DNA from: Methylomonas sp. UP202
GTDB lineage: Bacteria > Pseudomonadota > Gammaproteobacteria > Methylococcales > Methylomonadaceae
Direction: 5' to 3'
DNA length: 64,000 nt
NCBI RefSeq assembly: GCF_029910655.1
Contig: NZ_CP123897.1
Span: 124,001-188,000 of the forward strand
Shown: positions 7,256 through 39,429 of the stretch, piece after piece
Layout of the letters: each line of letters opens with the position of its first letter
Position numbering within the stretch: the first letter of the stretch is position 1
Made by a program: the position numbers and the translations under genes
The notes under the pieces: model-generated
What the model was told of the DNA's origin: nothing
Database searches by the model: none
The model's input: only the letters and a program-made list of their open reading frames with translations

Positions 7256-9460
7256 TTAATACAAGTCCAGCGGATCGACATCCAGCGACCAACGTACCGA
7301 TCTGGCCTCGCGTAAGTCGGCGAGGCGTGGAACCCAAAAATCCAGCAGCCGCTGCAAAGCCGGGCGCTTATCGCTTTGCAACAGTATTTGGTAACGGTAT
7401 AGCCCGGCGCGTCTGACCATCGGCGCGCTAACCGGGCCGAGCACTTGCACGCCGGACTGTGTAAAGTCGGTCAGACATTGAATGGCTGCCCCCAAAAATT
7501 GCTGCGGAGCGCCGGCGTTGCCGGCTTGCGCCCGCAACAGGGCTTGATAGCCGAAGGGGGGCAGTCCGGCGGCGCGGCGTTCGCTAAGCGCGGTTTCGGC
7601 GAAAGCTCGATAGCCGTGGCTCAGCAGGCTATGCAGCAGCGCGTGTCGCGGATGGCGGGTTTGTAGGATCACCCGGCCGGGCAATTCGGCTCGGCCGGCC
7701 CGACCGGCGACTTGCACGATCAACTGCGCCAATTTCTCGCCGCCGCGAAAGTCGATGCTGAACAGGCCGCTGTCGATATCCAGGATCGCGACCAAGGTCA
7801 CATTCGGAAAGTGGTGGCCCTTGGCCAGCATTTGCGTGCCGAGCACGATGTCGGCGTCGCCGCGATGAATTTGCTGCAAATAGCCTTCGAGCGCGCCCTT
7901 GCGTTGCGTGGTGTCGCGGTCCAGGCGGACGATGCGGCGGCCGGCGAACAACTCGGTTAGGGTTTCTTCGATGCGTTCGGTGCCCAGGCCGAGTGCCTGC
8001 AACTCGCCGATGCCGCAGGCCGGACACTGCCGCGGCAAGGCTTGCTCGTAGCCGCAATGATGGCAGCGCAATTTGTGTATGCCGGCGTGAATCACCAGAT
8101 TGGCGTCGCAACGGTGACAGCGCGATACCCAACCGCAATCGTGGCAGATTTGCACCGGCGCATAACCGCGCCGGTTTAGAAACAGCAGCACTTGCCGGCC
8201 TTCGGCGAGTTCCGCGCCGATCGCCGTTACCAATGGCTCCGACAGACCGGCTTGCAGCTTCTTGCCGCGAATGTCCAACACCTGAAATGCCGGCGGCTTG
8301 GCGTTGCCGGCCCGGTGCGGCAAGTGCGACAGACGGTAGCGGCCCTGGGCCACATTGGCCAGACTCTCCAGCGACGGCGTCGCCGAGCCCATCACCACCG
8401 GAATATTCAGCAGCTTGGCTCTGGCGATCGCGACATCGCGCGCCGAAAATCGAAACCCGTCCTGTTGTTTGAAGGAGCCGTCGTGTTCCTCGTCCAACAC
8501 GATCAGGCCGGGTTCCCGAAGCGGCGTAAACAGCGCGGATCGAGTGCCGAGCAGTATGCGCGCAACGCCGGCGCGCATGCTCAGCCAGGCTTGTTGGCGT
8601 TGCCGGTCGGTCAGATTCGAGTGAAAGGTTTCGATCCCCACCCCGAAGCGCTGCCGAAACCGCTGTTCCAATTGCGGTGTCAGATTGATTTCAGGCAGCA
8701 ATACCAAGACTTGCCGCCCCAAAGCCAGGGTTCGGGCGATGATCTGCATGTAGACTTCGGTTTTGCCGCTGCCGGTCACCCCCTCCAACAAATGCACCGC
8801 GAACCGGCCCAGGTCGGCGCCGACCGCGTCTATCGCGGCTTGCTGATCCGGATTGGCGGCCAGCGCGGCACCGAACACGACCGGACCATCCGACGGGTCC
8901 GGCATTCGCGGTTCGACCAAACCTTTGTCGATCAACGCCCGCAGGGCCGGCTTGTGTCCGGCCAATTCGGCCGCCGACCAAGCCGGTTCGCGGCTGAGCA
9001 TTCGCCGCAGCAAATCTTTTTGCCGAGTGGCGCGTCCCAAATCGACATCAGGCGCCCGGCCGGCCGCGGTCGGCGCGAAATAACGCTCGCACTGCAAAGT
9101 GGCCGGCAAACCTTGGCGTAACGCGGTCGGAAATGCCGTTGCCACTACTTCACCGATCGGATGGTGGTAGTAGCGGGCAGCCCATTCCAGCAACTGCAAA
9201 TCGAGAGCCGACAACAACGGGGTGTCGTCCAGTAGCTCGATGACCGGCTTAATCGAGCGACTGGCTAGCGTCGAGCCGTTGGCGCTACCCATGACGACGC
9301 CGACGCATTGACGCTTGCCGAACGGCACCAAAACCCTGGCGCCACGCTGAAATTCCGCCGAATTGCCGAGTTCGGAAGGTCGGTAATCGAACAATCTGTC
9401 CAACGGAACCGGCACCGCAATTTTTAAAATCAAACTGTCGGCGGCATCGCATTTAGCCAT
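7256..9460 (-). CDS. priA: Primosomal protein N', replication restart helicase PriA
   Basis: A 734-residue 3'-5' DNA helicase that reloads the replisome at stalled forks. The N-terminal 3'-DNA-end-binding domain begins 'LILKIAVPVPLDRLFDY'. Walker A is 'GVTGSGKT' at residues 227-234, and motif II is a DEEH box ('VLDEEHDGSFKQQ') at ~325. The zinc-binding insertion carries eight cysteines in CxxC pairs ('CHDCGWVSRCHRCD', 'CHHCGYEQ', 'CPACG'). Motifs V and VI follow ('GTQMLAKGHHFPNVTLV', 'VAGRAGRAELPGRVILQT'). Length is normal. Upstream (to its right) lies an AT-rich intergenic region with DnaA-box-like sequences. No strong Shine-Dalgarno is visible before the ATG. Confidence 0.96.
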   Translation of the reverse strand: MAKCDAADSLILKIAVPVPLDRLFDYRPSELGNSAEFQRGARVLVPFGKRQCVGVVMGSANGSTLASRSIKPVIELLDDTPLLSALDLQLLEWAARYYHHPIGEVVATAFPTALRQGLPATLQCERYFAPTAAGRAPDVDLGRATRQKDLLRRMLSREPAWSAAELAGHKPALRALIDKGLVEPRMPDPSDGPVVFGAALAANPDQQAAIDAVGADLGRFAVHLLEGVTGSGKTEVYMQIIARTLALGRQVLVLLPEINLTPQLEQRFRQRFGVGIETFHSNLTDRQRQQAWLSMRAGVARILLGTRSALFTPLREPGLIVLDEEHDGSFKQQDGFRFSARDVAIARAKLLNIPVVMGSATPSLESLANVAQGRYRLSHLPHRAGNAKPPAFQVLDIRGKKLQAGLSEPLVTAIGAELAEGRQVLLFLNRRGYAPVQICHDCGWVSRCHRCDANLVIHAGIHKLRCHHCGYEQALPRQCPACGIGELQALGLGTERIEETLTELFAGRRIVRLDRDTTQRKGALEGYLQQIHRGDADIVLGTQMLAKGHHFPNVTLVAILDIDSGLFSIDFRGGEKLAQLIVQVAGRAGRAELPGRVILQTRHPRHALLHSLLSHGYRAFAETALSERRAAGLPPFGYQALLRAQAGNAGAPQQFLGAAIQCLTDFTQSGVQVLGPVSAPMVRRAGLYRYQILLQSDKRPALQRLLDFWVPRLADLREARSVRWSLDVDPLDLY

Positions 9461-9799
9461 TTTTGATGAGTTGTTTTCGATGTTGCATCGCTAAGTGATT
9501 ATGTCGGCTAAGGAATTTAAGTTACCCACAAAACCTGTGGATAACTCTGTGGATGGAGGCGAATACGGACCGCTTAGTGTCGGATTTAATTACAGATTTG
9601 TTAAATTGCGTAAATTTGAGCCAATGTAATTTATCTTTAGTTATCAATGGCTTGAAATCAATCTTCGGCAGGCTCCATCGTTTTCCGTCTAGGCGGTGAG
9701 GCTTCGGGCGTTTGCTCCGTTTTTGTGCATAACTTGTTACAAAACTGAGGGAAATAACACAGCTTGGAGAAGGAAACCCTGTCCGATATTCGACAATGC
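9461..9799. other. Intergenic region upstream of priA (339 bp)
   Basis: Most of this stretch is AT-rich relative to the surrounding genes. It contains three DnaA-box-like 9-mers at 9522-9556 and the rest of a duplicated element (see the separate repeat entry). The priA promoter must lie here, since the upstream gene dsbB ends at 9800, but I cannot pick a convincing -35/-10 pair. Short open frames on either strand have no coding look. Confidence 0.5.
9522..9654 (+). repeat. Copy A of a duplicated intergenic element with DnaA-box-like sequences
   Basis: Three 9-mers with fixed spacing: TTACCCACA (9522-9530), 5 nt, TGTGGATAA (9536-9544, a perfect reverse DnaA box), 3 nt, TGTGGATGG (9548-9556). 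The first two can pair as a short hairpin (CCACA/TGTGG). After a variable stretch come TTAAATTG (9601-9608), CCAAT (9621-9625) and ttatcaatggcttg (9641-9654). The same blocks in the same order, with offsets differing by at most 2 nt, occur at 38197-38327. Seen directly in sequence; function unknown. Confidence 0.7.
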
Positions 9800-10312
9800 T
9801 TATTCGCTAATATGCGGTGTCGAATCGCCCCATAGCAGCCCGGCCCAGGTCGCCAGCAACAGGAAAGCAAACAAGGTCCAGGCCGGTATGCTCAATCCCA
9901 GTAAGGTCCAGTCGATCTTGGCGCATTCGCCGGTGCCGCTCAACATCAATTTGATGGTGTCGGCCAGCGGGAAATTCTGAAATACGTATTCCAGGCCGGG
10001 GCTGCATTCCGGTACCTCCTCCGGCGGCAAATGCTGCAACCACACGTGACGGGCGGAAACGCTGGCGCCGATCAATGCGGCGGCGGCGGCCAAAACCGCA
10101 TAGATCTTACGGCCGCGGTTGTGCAGGCCCGCCGCCAGGAAAATCAAGCCGGTGGCCAGTATGGCCAAGCGCTGCGAAATACACAGCGGACAGGGCTCCA
10201 GCTCTTCGACAAATTGCAAATAGGCACCGACGGCCAGCAAGCCGGCGCAGGCCATAAAACCGATAAAGAACCGCGCGCGCGGACTGAAATAATCAAAAAG
10301 CGAGCTGATCAT
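9800..10312 (-). CDS. dsbB: Disulfide bond formation protein B
   Basis: A 170-residue inner-membrane quinone reductase that re-oxidises DsbA. Four transmembrane segments are visible. The first periplasmic loop carries the CxxC pair in 'EPCPLCISQR' at about residues 41-44, and the second carries the other redox pair in 'VPECSPGLEY' and 'GTGECAKIDW'. These are the four conserved DsbB cysteines. Length is typical (about 170-176). The gene stands alone; no dsbA is adjacent. Confidence 0.93.
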   Translation of the reverse strand: MISSLFDYFSPRARFFIGFMACAGLLAVGAYLQFVEELEPCPLCISQRLAILATGLIFLAAGLHNRGRKIYAVLAAAAALIGASVSARHVWLQHLPPEEVPECSPGLEYVFQNFPLADTIKLMLSGTGECAKIDWTLLGLSIPAWTLFAFLLLATWAGLLWGDSTPHISE

Positions 10313-26031: not shown

Positions 26032-26177
26032 GATCCCGCCAGTTTCTATTGAAGCCTTCTGAGCGGCTTCGTTGATAAATGCCCCAAGTTATAGCATGTA
26101 ACCGGTGATTTGCAATCCTTACCGGGAGACTTGCCTTGCGCAAACGACTATTCCGGCCTAAAATCGCCTTCCCTCTT

Positions 26178-26376
26178 TCAGGTGTCCTGGACCGTATGGT
26201 CCGGCTTAAACAGGAAGTCGGTGAGCCGGTGTCATCCACCGTTCATGCCGACGCTGCCCCCGCAACGGTAGATAAGTCAAGAATTGCGAACAAGCCACTG
26301 TGCGATTGCGCATGGGAAGGCCGCAACTTCAGGCCGCTAAGGCCGCTTATGAGCCCGGAGACTGGCCCGAAAGATC
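26178..26376 (+). promoter_or_regulatory. Cobalamin (AdoCbl) riboswitch
   Basis: The conserved cobalamin riboswitch blocks appear in order on the plus strand: CAGGTGTCC near 26179, a purine-rich AACAGGAAGTCGGTG (26209-26223), the core GCTGCCCCCGCAACGGTA (26253-26270), AGCCACTG (the B12-box core, 26293-26300), a CATGGGAAGG block (26311-26320) and GAGCCCGGAGACTGGCCC (26351-26368). It lies about 120 bases upstream of the btuB start and should lower expression of the B12 genes when adenosylcobalamin is plentiful. Boundaries are approximate. Confidence 0.95.
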
Positions 26377-26494
26377 ATTCGAGACAGCGGAGGGCTGTTT
26401 ACGGAATGGTCGCAGCCTGTCTACGCCTTTTTCGTGCCCCGTTCTCCTCTGTCGTTTTTATACCCCGAATGCGCGGTGGGCGCAGAGGACAACC

Positions 26495-37261: not shown

Positions 37262-37852
37262 TCATTCGATGCTTTCGGTGTCGTCGTCGGATTCGCTTTG
37301 GTAGGCCGCGCCGGCATCGGCGATCAGCTGTTTCAAGTATTGATACAGCTGCCTTGCGGCCTTCGGCGGTTTGCCATCCTTCGCTTCTTTCTGAGCATTG
37401 CGTTGCAACTGACGCAGATGCTGGGTGTCGGCGTCCGGATATTCGCCGACCAATTCGGTAATTTGACCGTTACCGGAGTCGGCCAATAATGCGTCGCGCC
37501 AGCGTTCGGCCTGGTGGTGCTCGCGCACCGCATGAGCGCTGCGGTTTTTGAGGCGGTCCAGCTTTTCGCGGATCGAGTCGGTGTCGAGTTCGCGCATCCG
37601 CGCGGTGATGTATTTCAGCAGACGCTTCTTGGCGGCGTTTTGCCCCATTTTGCCGGCATCACGCAAGGCTTGCTCTATCGGTTCCGGCAGCTCGAATTCG
37701 GCGATTTGGGCTGCCGACAAGCCACAGATTTCCTCGGCCATCGCAAACACTTCGGCGATTTCCTTTTTGATGCGGGTCTTGTTTGGGCGTACCGCGTAAT
37801 ACTCGACTTCGTCGTCTTCGTCTTCGTCTTCCAGATAAAATTCTTCGTTCAT
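37262..37852 (-). CDS. darP: Ribosome-associated protein DarP (YjgA, DUF615)
   Basis: A 196-residue protein of the YjgA/DarP family, which assists 50S ribosomal subunit assembly. It opens with an acidic run ('EEFYLEDEDEDDEVE'), then 'RPNKTRIKKEIAEVFAMAEEICGLSAAQIAEFELPE', 'KRLLKYITARMRELD', 'REHHQAERWRDALL' and 'QLQRNAQKEAKDGKPPKAARQLYQYLK', all family-typical. I use the ATG at 37852, 2 bases before the stop of the small upstream gene; the frame extends further, but inside that gene. Confidence 0.92.
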   Translation of the reverse strand: MNEEFYLEDEDEDDEVEYYAVRPNKTRIKKEIAEVFAMAEEICGLSAAQIAEFELPEPIEQALRDAGKMGQNAAKKRLLKYITARMRELDTDSIREKLDRLKNRSAHAVREHHQAERWRDALLADSGNGQITELVGEYPDADTQHLRQLQRNAQKEAKDGKPPKAARQLYQYLKQLIADAGAAYQSESDDDTESIE

Positions 37853-37853
37853 T

Positions 37854-38036
37854 TCAAACCATTGCGATGAGGAACAGCACAAACATCACGACCATGACGA
37901 GCGGCACGATCAAGCCGCCCCAGTCGGATGGTGCTTGCCGGCTGCGGGCCAACGCGGCTTTGATGCCGGGTTGCATCCAGAATAAAATCAAAAGCGCCAA
38001 GGCGCCAATTAGCAGATTTTCCCAAGTGGAAAGCAT
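37854..38036 (-). CDS. Small membrane protein upstream of darP
   Basis: A 60-residue protein beginning 'MLSTWENLLIGALALLILFWM', with two predicted transmembrane helices separated by 'QPGIKAALARSRQAPSDWGG'; the second is 'LIVPLVMVVMFVLFLIAM'. The ATG at 38036 is preferred over one at 38090 because the extra residues are non-conserved in appearance. Its stop lies 1 base from the darP ATG, so the two are probably one transcript. No function is known to me. Confidence 0.7.
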   Translation of the reverse strand: MLSTWENLLIGALALLILFWMQPGIKAALARSRQAPSDWGGLIVPLVMVVMFVLFLIAMV

Positions 38037-38517
38037 GGTGTCGTCCCAGTTGCGGCCGACAGACGGCGGCCGGAGTGCCGTGTTCGGCATATCTTAACAA
38101 ACCTGATGGAAAGCCATGGTCAGGTTTTGTCCGGCGCTTTAGGATAGTCAGGGAGTTGTCGCCGATAAATGATTGCCCCGGCAGGGAAAAGTCCGGATAG
38201 TCACAGAAGCTGTGGATAAGTCTGTGAGTTGAGCGGCGATTTCCGGTCGAATTCCCCGGTTTTCCTGAAGCGAGCTTAAATTGTACAGAAATTGGCCAAT
38301 AAAAATACATTATTTATCAATGGCTTGTCTTTACTCTTTTGAATTCAACGAGTTATTTTGTCAAGCTTTTTTACAGTCTCGTCTTTAATGGCTAAATGTG
38401 AATAAGTGATAATGAAGCGATCCGTCCGACTTGGACGATTCGGCGGTTTCCCCAATTGGCCAGTTCTAAGGATTCAACAAATTTGCGATAATGGCCGGTT
38501 TTTGACAGAGTCTTTTC
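38037..38517. other. Divergent intergenic region upstream of rdgC (481 bp)
   Basis: It separates the small membrane protein gene (minus) from rdgC (plus). It contains the second copy of the DnaA-box-like element at 38197-38327, followed by an AT-rich tract (38280-38410) that probably includes the rdgC promoter. No coding frame or tRNA seen. Confidence 0.55.
38197..38327 (+). repeat. Copy B of the duplicated intergenic element with DnaA-box-like sequences
   Basis: ATAGTCACA (38197-38205), 5 nt, TGTGGATAA (38211-38219), 3 nt, TGTGAGTTG (38223-38231): the same box-5-box-3-box layout as at 9522-9556. The hairpin changes in compensating fashion (CACAG/CTGTG here). Then TTAAATTG (38276-38283), CCAAT (38296-38300) and the identical 14-mer ttatcaatggcttg (38314-38327). 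The distance from TGTGGATAA to the 14-mer is 103 here and 105 in copy A. Confidence 0.7.
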
Positions 38518-39429
38518 ATGTGGTTTAAGAATCTTGCCGTCTATCGGTTTTCCGAGCCGTTCGAGTTGTCCGCCGACGCCGTGCAACAAAAACTGGCTGA
38601 GTCTCCTTTCAAGCCATGTGGTAGCCACGACACCTTCAGTTTCGGCTGGACTTCGCCGTTGGGGCGGGCGTCCGACGACCTCGCGCACGTCAACAATGGC
38701 TTTTTGATGGTTTGCGCCAAGAAAGAGGAAAAGGTGGTTCCCGGTTCGGTCGTTAACGAGATGCTACAGGATCGGATTACTGAAATCGAAGAGCGCGAAG
38801 CTCGCAAACTGCCGGCCAAGGAACGCAGTCGGCTGAAGGACGAATTAATTTTTGATTTATTGCCGAGAGCCTTTTCCTTTTCCAAAAAGACCTATGCCTA
38901 CATCGACAGTCGAGGTGGTTGGCTGGTTGTTGACGCTGCCTCGGCGAAGAAAGCCGAGGACTTATTGAGCCTGTTACGCAAATGCCTGGGCTCGTTGCCG
39001 GTGACGCCGATTGCCGGCAACGGCATGGCCTCCAGCGTGATGACCCGGTGGCTGCTATCAAACCAAGCCCCTGGTGACATTGTCATCGAAGACGAATGCG
39101 AATTGCGATCACCCGAGGAAGAGGGCGCAATTATTCGCTGCAAGCGCCACGACCTGGGTTTGCCGGAGATCAAAAATCATTTGGATACCGGAAAACAAGT
39201 CATTAAATTAGCGATGAATTGGACGGATAGGCTATCGTTTGTGCTCGACGAGAATTTGGCGATTAAGCGCCTGAAATTCCTGGATTTAGTGCAGGAACAA
39301 GCCGCGAATATCGAGGCGTTCGACGAAGTCGAGCAATTCGATGCCGATTTTTCGATTATGACCGCGGAACTTGCCCAGTTCCTGCCGCGTCTGCTCGAAT
39401 TATTTAACGTTGAAGGTAAGGTTCAATGA
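38518..39429 (+). CDS. rdgC: Recombination-associated protein RdgC
   Basis: A 303-residue ring-forming DNA-binding protein that modulates RecA and supports replication fork integrity. The opening 'MWFKNLAVYRFSEPFELSADAVQQKL' and 'FGWTSPLGRASDDLAHVNNGFLMVCAKKEEKVVPGSVVNEMLQDRI' are diagnostic, with 'RAFSFSKKTYAYIDSRGGWLVVDAASAKKAEDLLSLLRKCLGSLPV' further in. Length matches E. coli RdgC (303). The stop overlaps the start of an L,D-transpeptidase gene (ATGA), an unexpected functional pairing. Confidence 0.96.
   Translation: MWFKNLAVYRFSEPFELSADAVQQKLAESPFKPCGSHDTFSFGWTSPLGRASDDLAHVNNGFLMVCAKKEEKVVPGSVVNEMLQDRITEIEEREARKLPAKERSRLKDELIFDLLPRAFSFSKKTYAYIDSRGGWLVVDAASAKKAEDLLSLLRKCLGSLPVTPIAGNGMASSVMTRWLLSNQAPGDIVIEDECELRSPEEEGAIIRCKRHDLGLPEIKNHLDTGKQVIKLAMNWTDRLSFVLDENLAIKRLKFLDLVQEQAANIEAFDEVEQFDADFSIMTAELAQFLPRLLELFNVEGKVQ

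What the first reader, a model, noticed from the sequence alone, without database searches (positions are those of the whole stretch)
9522..9654. Duplicated intergenic element with three DnaA-box-like sites in fixed spacing (copy near priA)
The box-5nt-box-3nt-box layout, the TTAAATTG and CCAAT blocks and a 14-mer (ttatcaatggcttg) about 104 nt away recur at 38197-38327 in the same order, with offsets differing by at most 2 nt. The intervening sequence has diverged. This pattern of conserved blocks suggests selection on a structured or protein-bound element. One copy precedes priA and the other precedes rdgC, both genes of replication-fork maintenance, so DnaA-linked control is conceivable.
Basis: partly seen in the sequence, partly recalled or inferred. 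Interest (0 to 1): 0.62.

Follow-up and report, generated by a model that had tools for sequence, protein, structure and literature searches.

The report
Two DARS-like DnaA-recharging DNA sites
The two matching stretches are probably non-coding docking sites where the replication-starting protein DnaA is recharged with ATP, built like the known DARS sites of E. coli but arranged differently and present in more copies.

Summary
The triad has the orientation and spacing of E. coli DARS1 and DARS2, the sites that turn ADP-DnaA back into ATP-DnaA. A profile finds seven such elements in this genome, and at least one in 37 of 37 genus genomes (2-11 each) and 234 of 276 sampled class genomes. Within the genus they form two types: type A with IHF site and fourth box (as at priA and rdgC), type B with neither; 7 of 121 fit neither type. 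Best explanation: DARS-like DnaA-reactivating elements, type A being IHF/Fis-dependent like DARS2. DnaA control of priA and rdgC is not supported: the copies face those genes in opposite ways and other copies lie by unrelated genes. Against: E. coli datA scores as high as DARS1 with the profile; only box I separates them. Binding and ADP release are untested. New variant of a known kind.

The parts
9522..9530 (+). Copy 1 (priA side): DnaA box I, TTACCCACA, inverted relative to boxes II and III
   Evidence: 1 mismatch to TTATNCACA
9536..9544 (-). Copy 1: DnaA box II, TGTGGATAA, perfect consensus, 5 nt from box I
9548..9556 (-). Copy 1: DnaA box III, TGTGGATGG, 3 nt from box II
9601..9623 (+).
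   Evidence: motif at exactly +79 in 97 of 121 genus elements; profile hit 9522-9624, 55.8 bits
9642..9654 (+). Copy 1: IHF site TATCAATGGCTTG, perfect WATCAANNNNTTR, at +120
   Evidence: consensus printed in PMC4585315 (passages)
9724..9732 (-). Copy 1: fourth DnaA box TGTGCATAA, perfect, at +202
38197..38205 (+). Copy 2 (rdgC side): DnaA box I, ATAGTCACA (2 of 8 mismatches)
38211..38219 (-). Copy 2: DnaA box II, TGTGGATAA, perfect
38223..38231 (-). Copy 2: DnaA box III, TGTGAGTTG, weak
38276..38298 (+). Copy 2: Fis-type motif at +79 (TTAAATTGTACAGAAATTGGCCA); its 15-mer GTACAGAAATTGGCC fits GNNYANNNNNTRNNC (my reading)
   Evidence: profile hit 38198-38299, 55.4 bits
38315..38327 (+). Copy 2: IHF site TATCAATGGCTTG, perfect consensus, at +118
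38397..38405 (-). Copy 2: fourth DnaA box TGTGAATAA, perfect, at +200
7256..9460 (-). priA; start codon 61 bp from box I of copy 1
   Evidence: NCBIfam TIGR00595, 612 bits, cut-off 230
9800..10312 (-). Neighbour of copy 1 on the other side, disulfide bond formation protein B-like
   Evidence: NCBIfam NF003354, 150 bits, below its cut-off of 168
38518..39429 (+). rdgC; start codon 190 bp after the IHF site of copy 2
   Evidence: NCBIfam NF001462, 377 bits, cut-off 330
37262..37882 (-). yjgA-like gene on the other side of copy 2
   Evidence: NCBIfam NF003593, 144.5 bits, cut-off 70

Best explanation
Both copies are DARS-like DnaA-reactivating elements of an IHF/Fis-dependent form (type A). Inferred mechanism: two ADP-DnaA molecules bind boxes I and II head to head, box III stabilises them, and ADP is released so that DnaA can bind ATP. 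Fis on the +79 palindrome and IHF on the +120 site shape the complex; the IHF bend lies between the triad and the fourth box and could bring the DnaA on the fourth box to the triad. Shown here: presence, order, register and conservation of the sites, and identity of the core geometry with E. coli DARS1 and DARS2. Inferred: binding by DnaA, Fis and IHF, looping, ADP release and effect on initiation.
For: E. coli DARS1 and DARS2 cores have the same orientation and 5/3 spacing; reviews say that equal spacing and an inverted box I mark the DARS core (PMC5742627, passages; PMC10380432 section 10). With spacers of 0-14 and 0-14 allowed (225 combinations), 70 of 71 three-box matches in 140 class genomes have exactly 5/3 (counted); backwards control 0. 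In 29 class loci chosen by the core alone, the Fis motif score peaks at +79 (z 6.8; best offset in 15 of 29) and the IHF score at +121 and +120; 23 of 29 have an IHF site (up to 1 mismatch, +114 to +126) and 20 of 29 a perfect fourth box at +195 to +212. In the genus, IHF site and fourth box go together: of 121 elements 47 both, 67 neither, 7 one only. Box I separates DARS from other DnaA loci of E. coli: mismatches of 8 are 1 (DARS1), 1 (DARS2), 1 and 2 (window copies) against 4 (datA) and 6 (oriC). The genome encodes DnaA, Hda (TIGR03420 255 bits, cut-off 194.8) and a Fis homologue (49% identity to E. coli Fis over residues 17-97).
Against: No binding or activity data. E. coli datA scores as high as DARS1 with the profile (20.2 and 20.1 bits) and oriC (15.9) near DARS2 (16.1), because a box II-III pair is shared; only box I separates them, and in copy 2 boxes I and III are weak. 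E. coli DARS1 and DARS2 match only the core end of the profile; DARS2 has IHF-like sites at +93/+109, a Fis consensus at +145 and its extra box in the other orientation, so the arrangement downstream of the core differs. The loci differ from E. coli (uvrB, mutH/rppH): 0 of 29 class loci lie by those genes. 42 of 276 class genomes had no match. In the class the IHF site and fourth box are not tied to each other (14 both, 9 IHF only, 6 box only, 0 neither of 29). IHF genes were not looked for.
Confidence: 0.72

Rival explanations
1. The elements are DnaA sinks or datA-like inactivators: they hold DnaA or, with IHF, drive hydrolysis of DnaA-bound ATP, so they restrain rather than promote initiation.
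For: A box II-III pair with 3-nt spacing is shared with E. coli datA, which scores 20.2 bits with the profile; type A has an IHF site between two groups of DnaA boxes, and IHF looping between boxes 2 and 3 is the model for datA (PMC10380432, passages). Seven copies could hold many DnaA molecules; a large share of titration by DARS1, DARS2 and datA is argued in PMC12371093 (abstract, headings and section 6).
Against: datA has no box I at that place (4 of 8 mismatches) and its perfect IHF consensus lies on the other side, at -55. The conserved head-to-head pair with 5-nt spacer (70 of 71 matches) is described as characteristic of DARS. A Fis site is described for DARS2, not for minimal datA.
Confidence: 0.15
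2. The elements are DnaA/Fis/IHF-controlled promoter regions of priA and rdgC.
For: Copy 1 ends 61 bp from the priA start; the core (up to 2 mismatches) is near priA in 20 of 78 PriA loci outside the genus, and 8 of 29 class loci picked by the profile lie by priA. A further block (GCTTAGTG...TTTATTACA) is conserved in the priA group and could be a promoter.
Against: Opposite orientation relative to the two genes; neighbours of other copies have no replication role by Pfam; one pair apparently between convergent genes. Regulation of a neighbour could still be a side effect.
Confidence: 0.08
3. The elements are secondary origins or primosome-assembly sites.
For: DnaA boxes and IHF sites also make up oriC; one copy is next to priA; a copy is on contig C2 beside a TraF gene.
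Against: Seven copies per genome; dnaA with its own box clusters lies at C1:1-2289; the core does not occur there or in the last 2.5 kb of the contig up to 5 mismatches. No search for an unwinding element was made.
Confidence: 0.03
4. A dispersed mobile repeat (REP/MITE-like) that happens to carry DnaA boxes.
For: Several copies per genome; tandem pairs and arrays occur.
Against: Non-orthologous copies share mainly the protein-site positions; copies stay beside homologous reading frames across the genus (groups of 21 and 15 members for the priA and rdgC copies). I saw no inverted-repeat ends in the alignment, but did not search for them.
Confidence: 0.02

Closest known systems
DARS2 of E. coli
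   Same: Core of three DnaA boxes in the same orientation and spacing; IHF and Fis sites and a further DnaA box downstream within about 220 bp.
   Different: Order and positions: here Fis motif +79, IHF +118/+120, fourth box at +200/+202 in the orientation of boxes II and III; in E. coli IHF-like sites at +93/+109, a Fis consensus at +145, perfect box at +211 in the other orientation. Different genes beside it.
DARS1 of E. coli
   Same: Same core; AATTG at +82 to +86 in the register of the +79 motif (read from the sequence). Type B elements resemble it in lacking an IHF site and perfect extra boxes.
   Different: Profile matches only the core end (20.1 bits); no Fis consensus at +86; described as needing no protein factors (PMC4585315, passages).
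datA of E. coli
   Same: Box II-III equivalent TGTGGATAACTCTGT; 20.2 bits with the profile; IHF consensus in the neighbourhood.
   Different: No inverted box I; IHF consensus at -55 instead of +120; no perfect box near +200.
oriC of E. coli
   Same: Box II-III-like pair (15.9 bits).
   Different: No box I (6 of 8 mismatches).

Membership tests
DARS (DnaA-reactivating sequence) | Three DnaA boxes, box I opposite to II and III, same spacing as DARS1/DARS2 | tested here: met
   definition from PMC5742627 (passages). In copy 2 boxes I and III are weak
DARS (DnaA-reactivating sequence) | Promotes ADP release from ADP-DnaA | not testable with these tools
   needs purified proteins
DARS2-type | IHF and Fis sites downstream of the core | tested here: met
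   by consensus and register only; binding not tested
DARS2-type | Same order and distances of core, IHF and Fis sites as in E. coli and its relatives | tested here: not met
   Fis +79 then IHF +120, against IHF-like +93/+109 then Fis +145; so not filed as a DARS2 orthologue
DARS1 or DARS2 orthologue | Genomic position as in E. coli (bioD-uvrB or rppH-mutH) | tested here: not met
   own copies at priA and rdgC; 0 of 29 class loci (about 1.5 kb each side) match E. coli RppH, MutH, PtsP, YgdR, BioD or UvrB
datA | DnaA boxes 2, 7 and 3 with one IHF site, no inverted box I | tested here: not met
   inverted box I present here; IHF on the other side
datA | IHF-dependent hydrolysis of DnaA-bound ATP | not testable with these tools
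   needs purified proteins
oriC | Unique origin with unwinding element | tested here: inconclusive
   seven copies and dnaA elsewhere speak against; unwinding element not searched for
structured RNA | RNA structure or known family | tested here: not met

The most novel reading that the evidence does not exclude
Most gammaproteobacteria use a four-part DnaA-recharging station (inverted-box triad, Fis palindrome at +79, IHF bend at +120, returning DnaA box at about +203) of which E. coli DARS1 and DARS2 are rearranged descendants, and Methylococcales run an expanded network of it, about seven stations per chromosome in Methylomonas in two classes (IHF-gated type A and constitutive type B), so that the rise of ATP-DnaA is set by many dispersed sites instead of two.
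Probability: 0.4. Interest if true: 0.75.

Novelty: new variant of a known kind. Interest (0 to 1): 0.6.

Why it matters
In the papers seen, DARS sites are worked out in E. coli, where two are described and a third Fis-dependent one has been suspected (PMC4245941, passages). Here the same core with a different, strictly registered set of accessory sites is found in 234 of 276 sampled class genomes and in several copies in a methanotroph genus. That gives comparative rules (5/3 spacers, +79, +120, about +203; in the genus IHF site and fourth box present or absent together) that can be tested directly, suggests which parts of DARS2 are peculiar to enteric bacteria, and offers a natural two-class system for asking what IHF and the extra DnaA box do. 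A review says that sequences similar to DARS1/2 occur in many proteobacteria (PMC10380432 section 10, citing Fujimitsu 2009, not held), so the spread itself may be partly known; the architecture and copy number were not found in the searches made (listings, plus the passages cited).

Tried and rejected
Chance similarity of two AT-rich promoters: rejected. The 14-mer as a family of its own: rejected, 7 sites with up to 1 mismatch in the genome and only 2 with boxes; in the window it has 14 matches with up to 3 mismatches where 4 are expected, left unexplained. Structured RNA: rejected. Plasmid-derived origin: blastn against plasmids gave 46 records, the 20 listed with short matches over the box triad, 18-20% of the query; phages gave none for priA (of little use here). 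The first fixed pattern (TGTGGATAA, gap, TCAATGGCTTG) found only 4 of 37 genus genomes; the box pattern then found 37 of 37. Using the profile score alone to call DARS in E. coli: rejected, datA scores as high as DARS1. Promoter or terminator consensus: none found, few expected.

Rows dropped before counts: one of 30 class loci was too near a contig end (29 used); of 29 class loci picked by profile 28 were used; of 80 PriA loci 22 had a core with up to 2 mismatches, and two of these (L013, L014) turned out to be genus members, the same DNA as L220 and L215, so the outside figures are 20 of 78; of 18 loci from other classes 16 had a core with up to 4 mismatches. Two of the 121 genus elements (L209_1, L216_1) are probably opposite-strand readings of palindromic cores. 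The listing was cut off after G021; from it 100 stretches of 18 genomes were fetched; rows of G005, G008 and G021, three of G020, three of G009 and one of G017 were left out, as were second readings of palindromes.

Full report
WHAT IS THERE. The window is C1:124001-188000 of a 5.68-Mb genome in two contigs. Two genus members are named Methylomonas records: L013 and L014 (Methylomonas sp. WSC-7 and WSC-6) hold the same DNA as stretches of G018 and G017, so the genus is Methylomonas. dnaA is at C1:307, so the replication origin is probably near position 0 of the contig, and the two copies at C1:133.5 kb and 162.2 kb are origin-proximal. The described blocks are all present. Taking the first base of box I as 0, copy 1 and copy 2 have: box I 0, box II 14, box III 26, a 23-bp motif beginning TTAAATTG at 79, a perfect IHF consensus at 120 and 118, and a perfect DnaA box at 202 and 200. 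The IHF consensus WATCAANNNNTTR and the Fis consensus GNNYANNNNNTRNNC are those printed in PMC4585315 (passages).

MORE COPIES IN THIS GENOME. The core pattern TTATNCACA-N5-TGTGGATAA-N3-TGTG with up to 3 mismatches has 8 hits at 7 places and 0 in the reversed control. A sequence-only profile of 104 positions was built from 49 elements of 17 other genomes of the genus, which align without a gap. It finds seven elements here over most of its length: C1:4490738 (6.9e-17), 628135 (1.6e-16), 2316110 (2.0e-15), 133522 (2.4e-14, copy 1), 162198 (3.2e-14, copy 2), 2316360 (7.5e-13) and C2:30365 (2.2e-7); the next, 0.042, is the other strand of the last. The profile contains orthologues of both copies from other genomes, so this shows reality and copy number, not independence by locus.

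INDEPENDENCE BY LOCUS. I took 121 cores from 108 loci (100 stretches of 18 genomes, plus 8 earlier loci) and grouped them by homology of flanking reading frames into 25 groups: 21 in the group of the priA copy, 15 in that of the rdgC copy, the rest elsewhere. A match of at least 14 of 23 to the motif has its best place at exactly +79 in 97 of 121; 104 of 121, from 22 of 25 groups, have it within 76-84. Best scores upstream of the core were 10-15 with one 18, downstream 11-23. The conserved inner part, TGnnYAAWWWTTRnnCA, is a palindrome that fits the Fis consensus, preceded by TYARAY; information is 0.06 bits just before the motif and 0.43 then 0.18 just after it. Some elements miss the motif there, for instance the contig C2 type (best score 11-14 at +77).

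TWO TYPES. In the genus an IHF site (up to 1 mismatch, +114 to +126) is present in 51 of 121 elements, against 0 to 8 of 121 in seven control windows. It goes with a perfect fourth DnaA box at +195 to +212: 47 elements have both, 67 neither, 4 only IHF, 3 only the box. By group: priA 20 of 21 with IHF, and 20 perfect boxes at 202-205; rdgC 15 of 15 and 15 boxes at 200-204; groups 7 and 8 6 of 6 and 5 of 5; groups 2, 3, 4 and 6 have 0 of 40 IHF sites. I call these type A and type B. Both window copies are type A; the other five in this genome lack the IHF site and a perfect box at 195-212, though one has a perfect box at +262.

BEYOND THE GENUS. Profile hits at E up to 1e-4: 37 of 37 genus genomes, 2 to 11 copies, median 7; 147 of 151 genomes of the order, 46 of 47 genera; 234 of 276 genomes of the class, 186 of 216 genera, commonly 1 to 3 copies and up to 8; 140 of 249 in a phylum sample, including members of other classes, one family of which has 1 to 9 copies. 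Named examples come: outside the genus the core (up to 2 mismatches) is found in 20 of 78 PriA loci, among them Methylobacter, Methylovulum, Cycloclasticus and Sedimenticola records, and in none of the Pseudomonas PriA loci held there.

TESTS OF GEOMETRY. A pattern with both spacers free from 0 to 14 in 140 class genomes gave 71 matches in 54 genomes; 70 have spacers 5 and 3, and one reads 5 and 5 (there TGTGTGGA also gives a 3-nt spacer to TGTG); reversed control 0 (counted). This pattern demands perfect boxes, so it does not see weak ones, this genome's included. In 29 loci from that search, chosen by boxes only, the motif score peaks at +79 (z 6.8; best of 214 offsets in 15 of 29) and the IHF score at +121 and +120. 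In the same 29, IHF is present in 23 and the fourth box in 20; all 23 perfect boxes seen at 140-300 lie at 192-215 in one orientation. There the two sites are not tied to each other (14 both, 9 IHF only, 6 box only, 0 neither), so the all-or-none rule is a genus finding. In the 20 PriA loci outside the genus IHF is present in 18, the fourth box in 13, and +79 is the best offset in 13. In 16 loci of other classes, chosen by the profile, the motif score peaks at +78/+79; 6 have the IHF site, none the fourth box.

COMPARISON WITH E. COLI. The cores of DARS1 (bioD-uvrB) and DARS2 (rppH-mutH) fetched from MG1655 match the pattern with 1 and 2 mismatches at the same spacings. PMC5742627 (passages) says that the spacing is the same in both and that box I is opposite; PMC10380432 section 10 says that the head-to-head pair of boxes I and II is characteristic and essential. 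DARS2 has IHF-like sites at +93 and +109, a Fis consensus at +145 and a perfect box at +211 in the other orientation; DARS1 shows AATTG in the register of the +79 motif, no Fis consensus there and no IHF site up to 1 mismatch. Against a simple reading: the profile gives datA 20.2 bits and oriC 15.9, as much as DARS1 (20.1) and DARS2 (16.1), because a box II-III pair is shared. What separates them is box I: 4 and 6 of 8 mismatches in datA and oriC, 1 in both DARS, 1 and 2 in the window copies. datA also has its perfect IHF consensus on the other side (-55). No whole-chromosome scan of E. coli was possible.

HOW IT MOST LIKELY WORKS. From the DARS mechanism as reviewed: ADP-DnaA on boxes I and II meet head to head through their AAA+ domains, ADP is released, apo-DnaA leaves and binds ATP; box III helps assembly; at DARS2 IHF and Fis are needed. 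The site order here suggests that Fis near the triad and an IHF bend between the triad and the fourth box fold the fragment so that DnaA on the fourth box joins the triad complex; joint presence or absence of IHF site and fourth box in the genus is what such a loop predicts, while the looser link in the class is against a strict need. Type B would be a simpler form. The genome has the partners tested: DnaA, Hda, which makes ADP-DnaA, and Fis. All steps of function are inferred.

WHY NOT GENE CONTROL. Copy 1 turns its box I end to priA, copy 2 its IHF end to rdgC. Other copies lie between a frame without Pfam match and a POR_N oxidoreductase gene, between Meth_synt_2 and DUF815 genes, and after a phosphopantetheinyl transferase gene, where the next sizeable frame points towards it (that frame has no Pfam match, so convergence is likely but not proven). 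Absence of promoter-like pairs says little. A local effect on priA is possible, since a further block is conserved in the priA group and 8 of 29 profile-picked class loci lie by priA.

WHAT IS NEW. Presence of DARS-like sequences in many proteobacteria is already stated in a review (citing a paper not held). Kasho 2014 describes conservation of core, IHF and Fis sites in E. coli relatives (section 26), and PMC8682772 section 16 treats seven species. I found nothing in the held library on the arrangement described here, on the two types, or on copy number (listings and the passages cited). Hence new variant of a known kind.

Noticed in passing
L195, L209, L212, L216 (genomes G012, G015, G016, G017): Tandem arrays of DARS-like cores with a period of about 165-176 bp, between an ABC-transporter-like and a dehydrogenase-like frame by my reading; IHF site in 0 of 10 elements of this group.
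   Followed up: partly
G000:C1:2316110 and 2316360 (L097, L330): Two elements 250 bp apart after a phosphopantetheinyl transferase gene, apparently between convergent genes.
   Followed up: partly
G000:C2:30365-30476 (L098, L333): A copy on the 149-kb contig beside a TraF gene, with a triad readable on both strands and a poor motif at +77; a similar copy with homologous flanks occurs in G002, G004 and G006.
   Followed up: partly
window 9572-9594: Block GCTTAGTG.CGG.TTTAATTACA between core and Fis motif, conserved in the priA group of the genus and in several priA loci of other genera; unexplained, perhaps the priA promoter.
   Followed up: no
L232 1707-1828 and 2072-2193 (after dnaA): Three DnaA boxes with the same spacing occur twice, 365 bp apart, at the dnaA locus; perhaps a duplicated part of oriC.
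   Followed up: no
G000 chromosome: If the origin is at dnaA, all six chromosomal elements have the same orientation relative to fork movement (five + on the right arm, one - on the left arm). Not tested in other genomes.
   Followed up: no
L307-L313, L315 (other class of the phylum, family f177): Genomes of 2-3 Mb with up to nine elements; some show the perfect palindrome GCCTAAATTTTAGGC in the +79 register and an IHF-like site near +119.
   Followed up: partly
window 38197-38231: In this species the rdgC copy has 2 mismatches to the core pattern; the 14 other members of its group have 0 or 1.
   Followed up: partly
window 26163-26384: Cobalamin riboswitch (RF00174, 97.8 bits).
   Followed up: no
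family f1, genus g371 (G651, G656, G658, G669): Four genomes of 2.1-2.7 Mb in the same family have no profile match, a possible natural loss.
   Followed up: no
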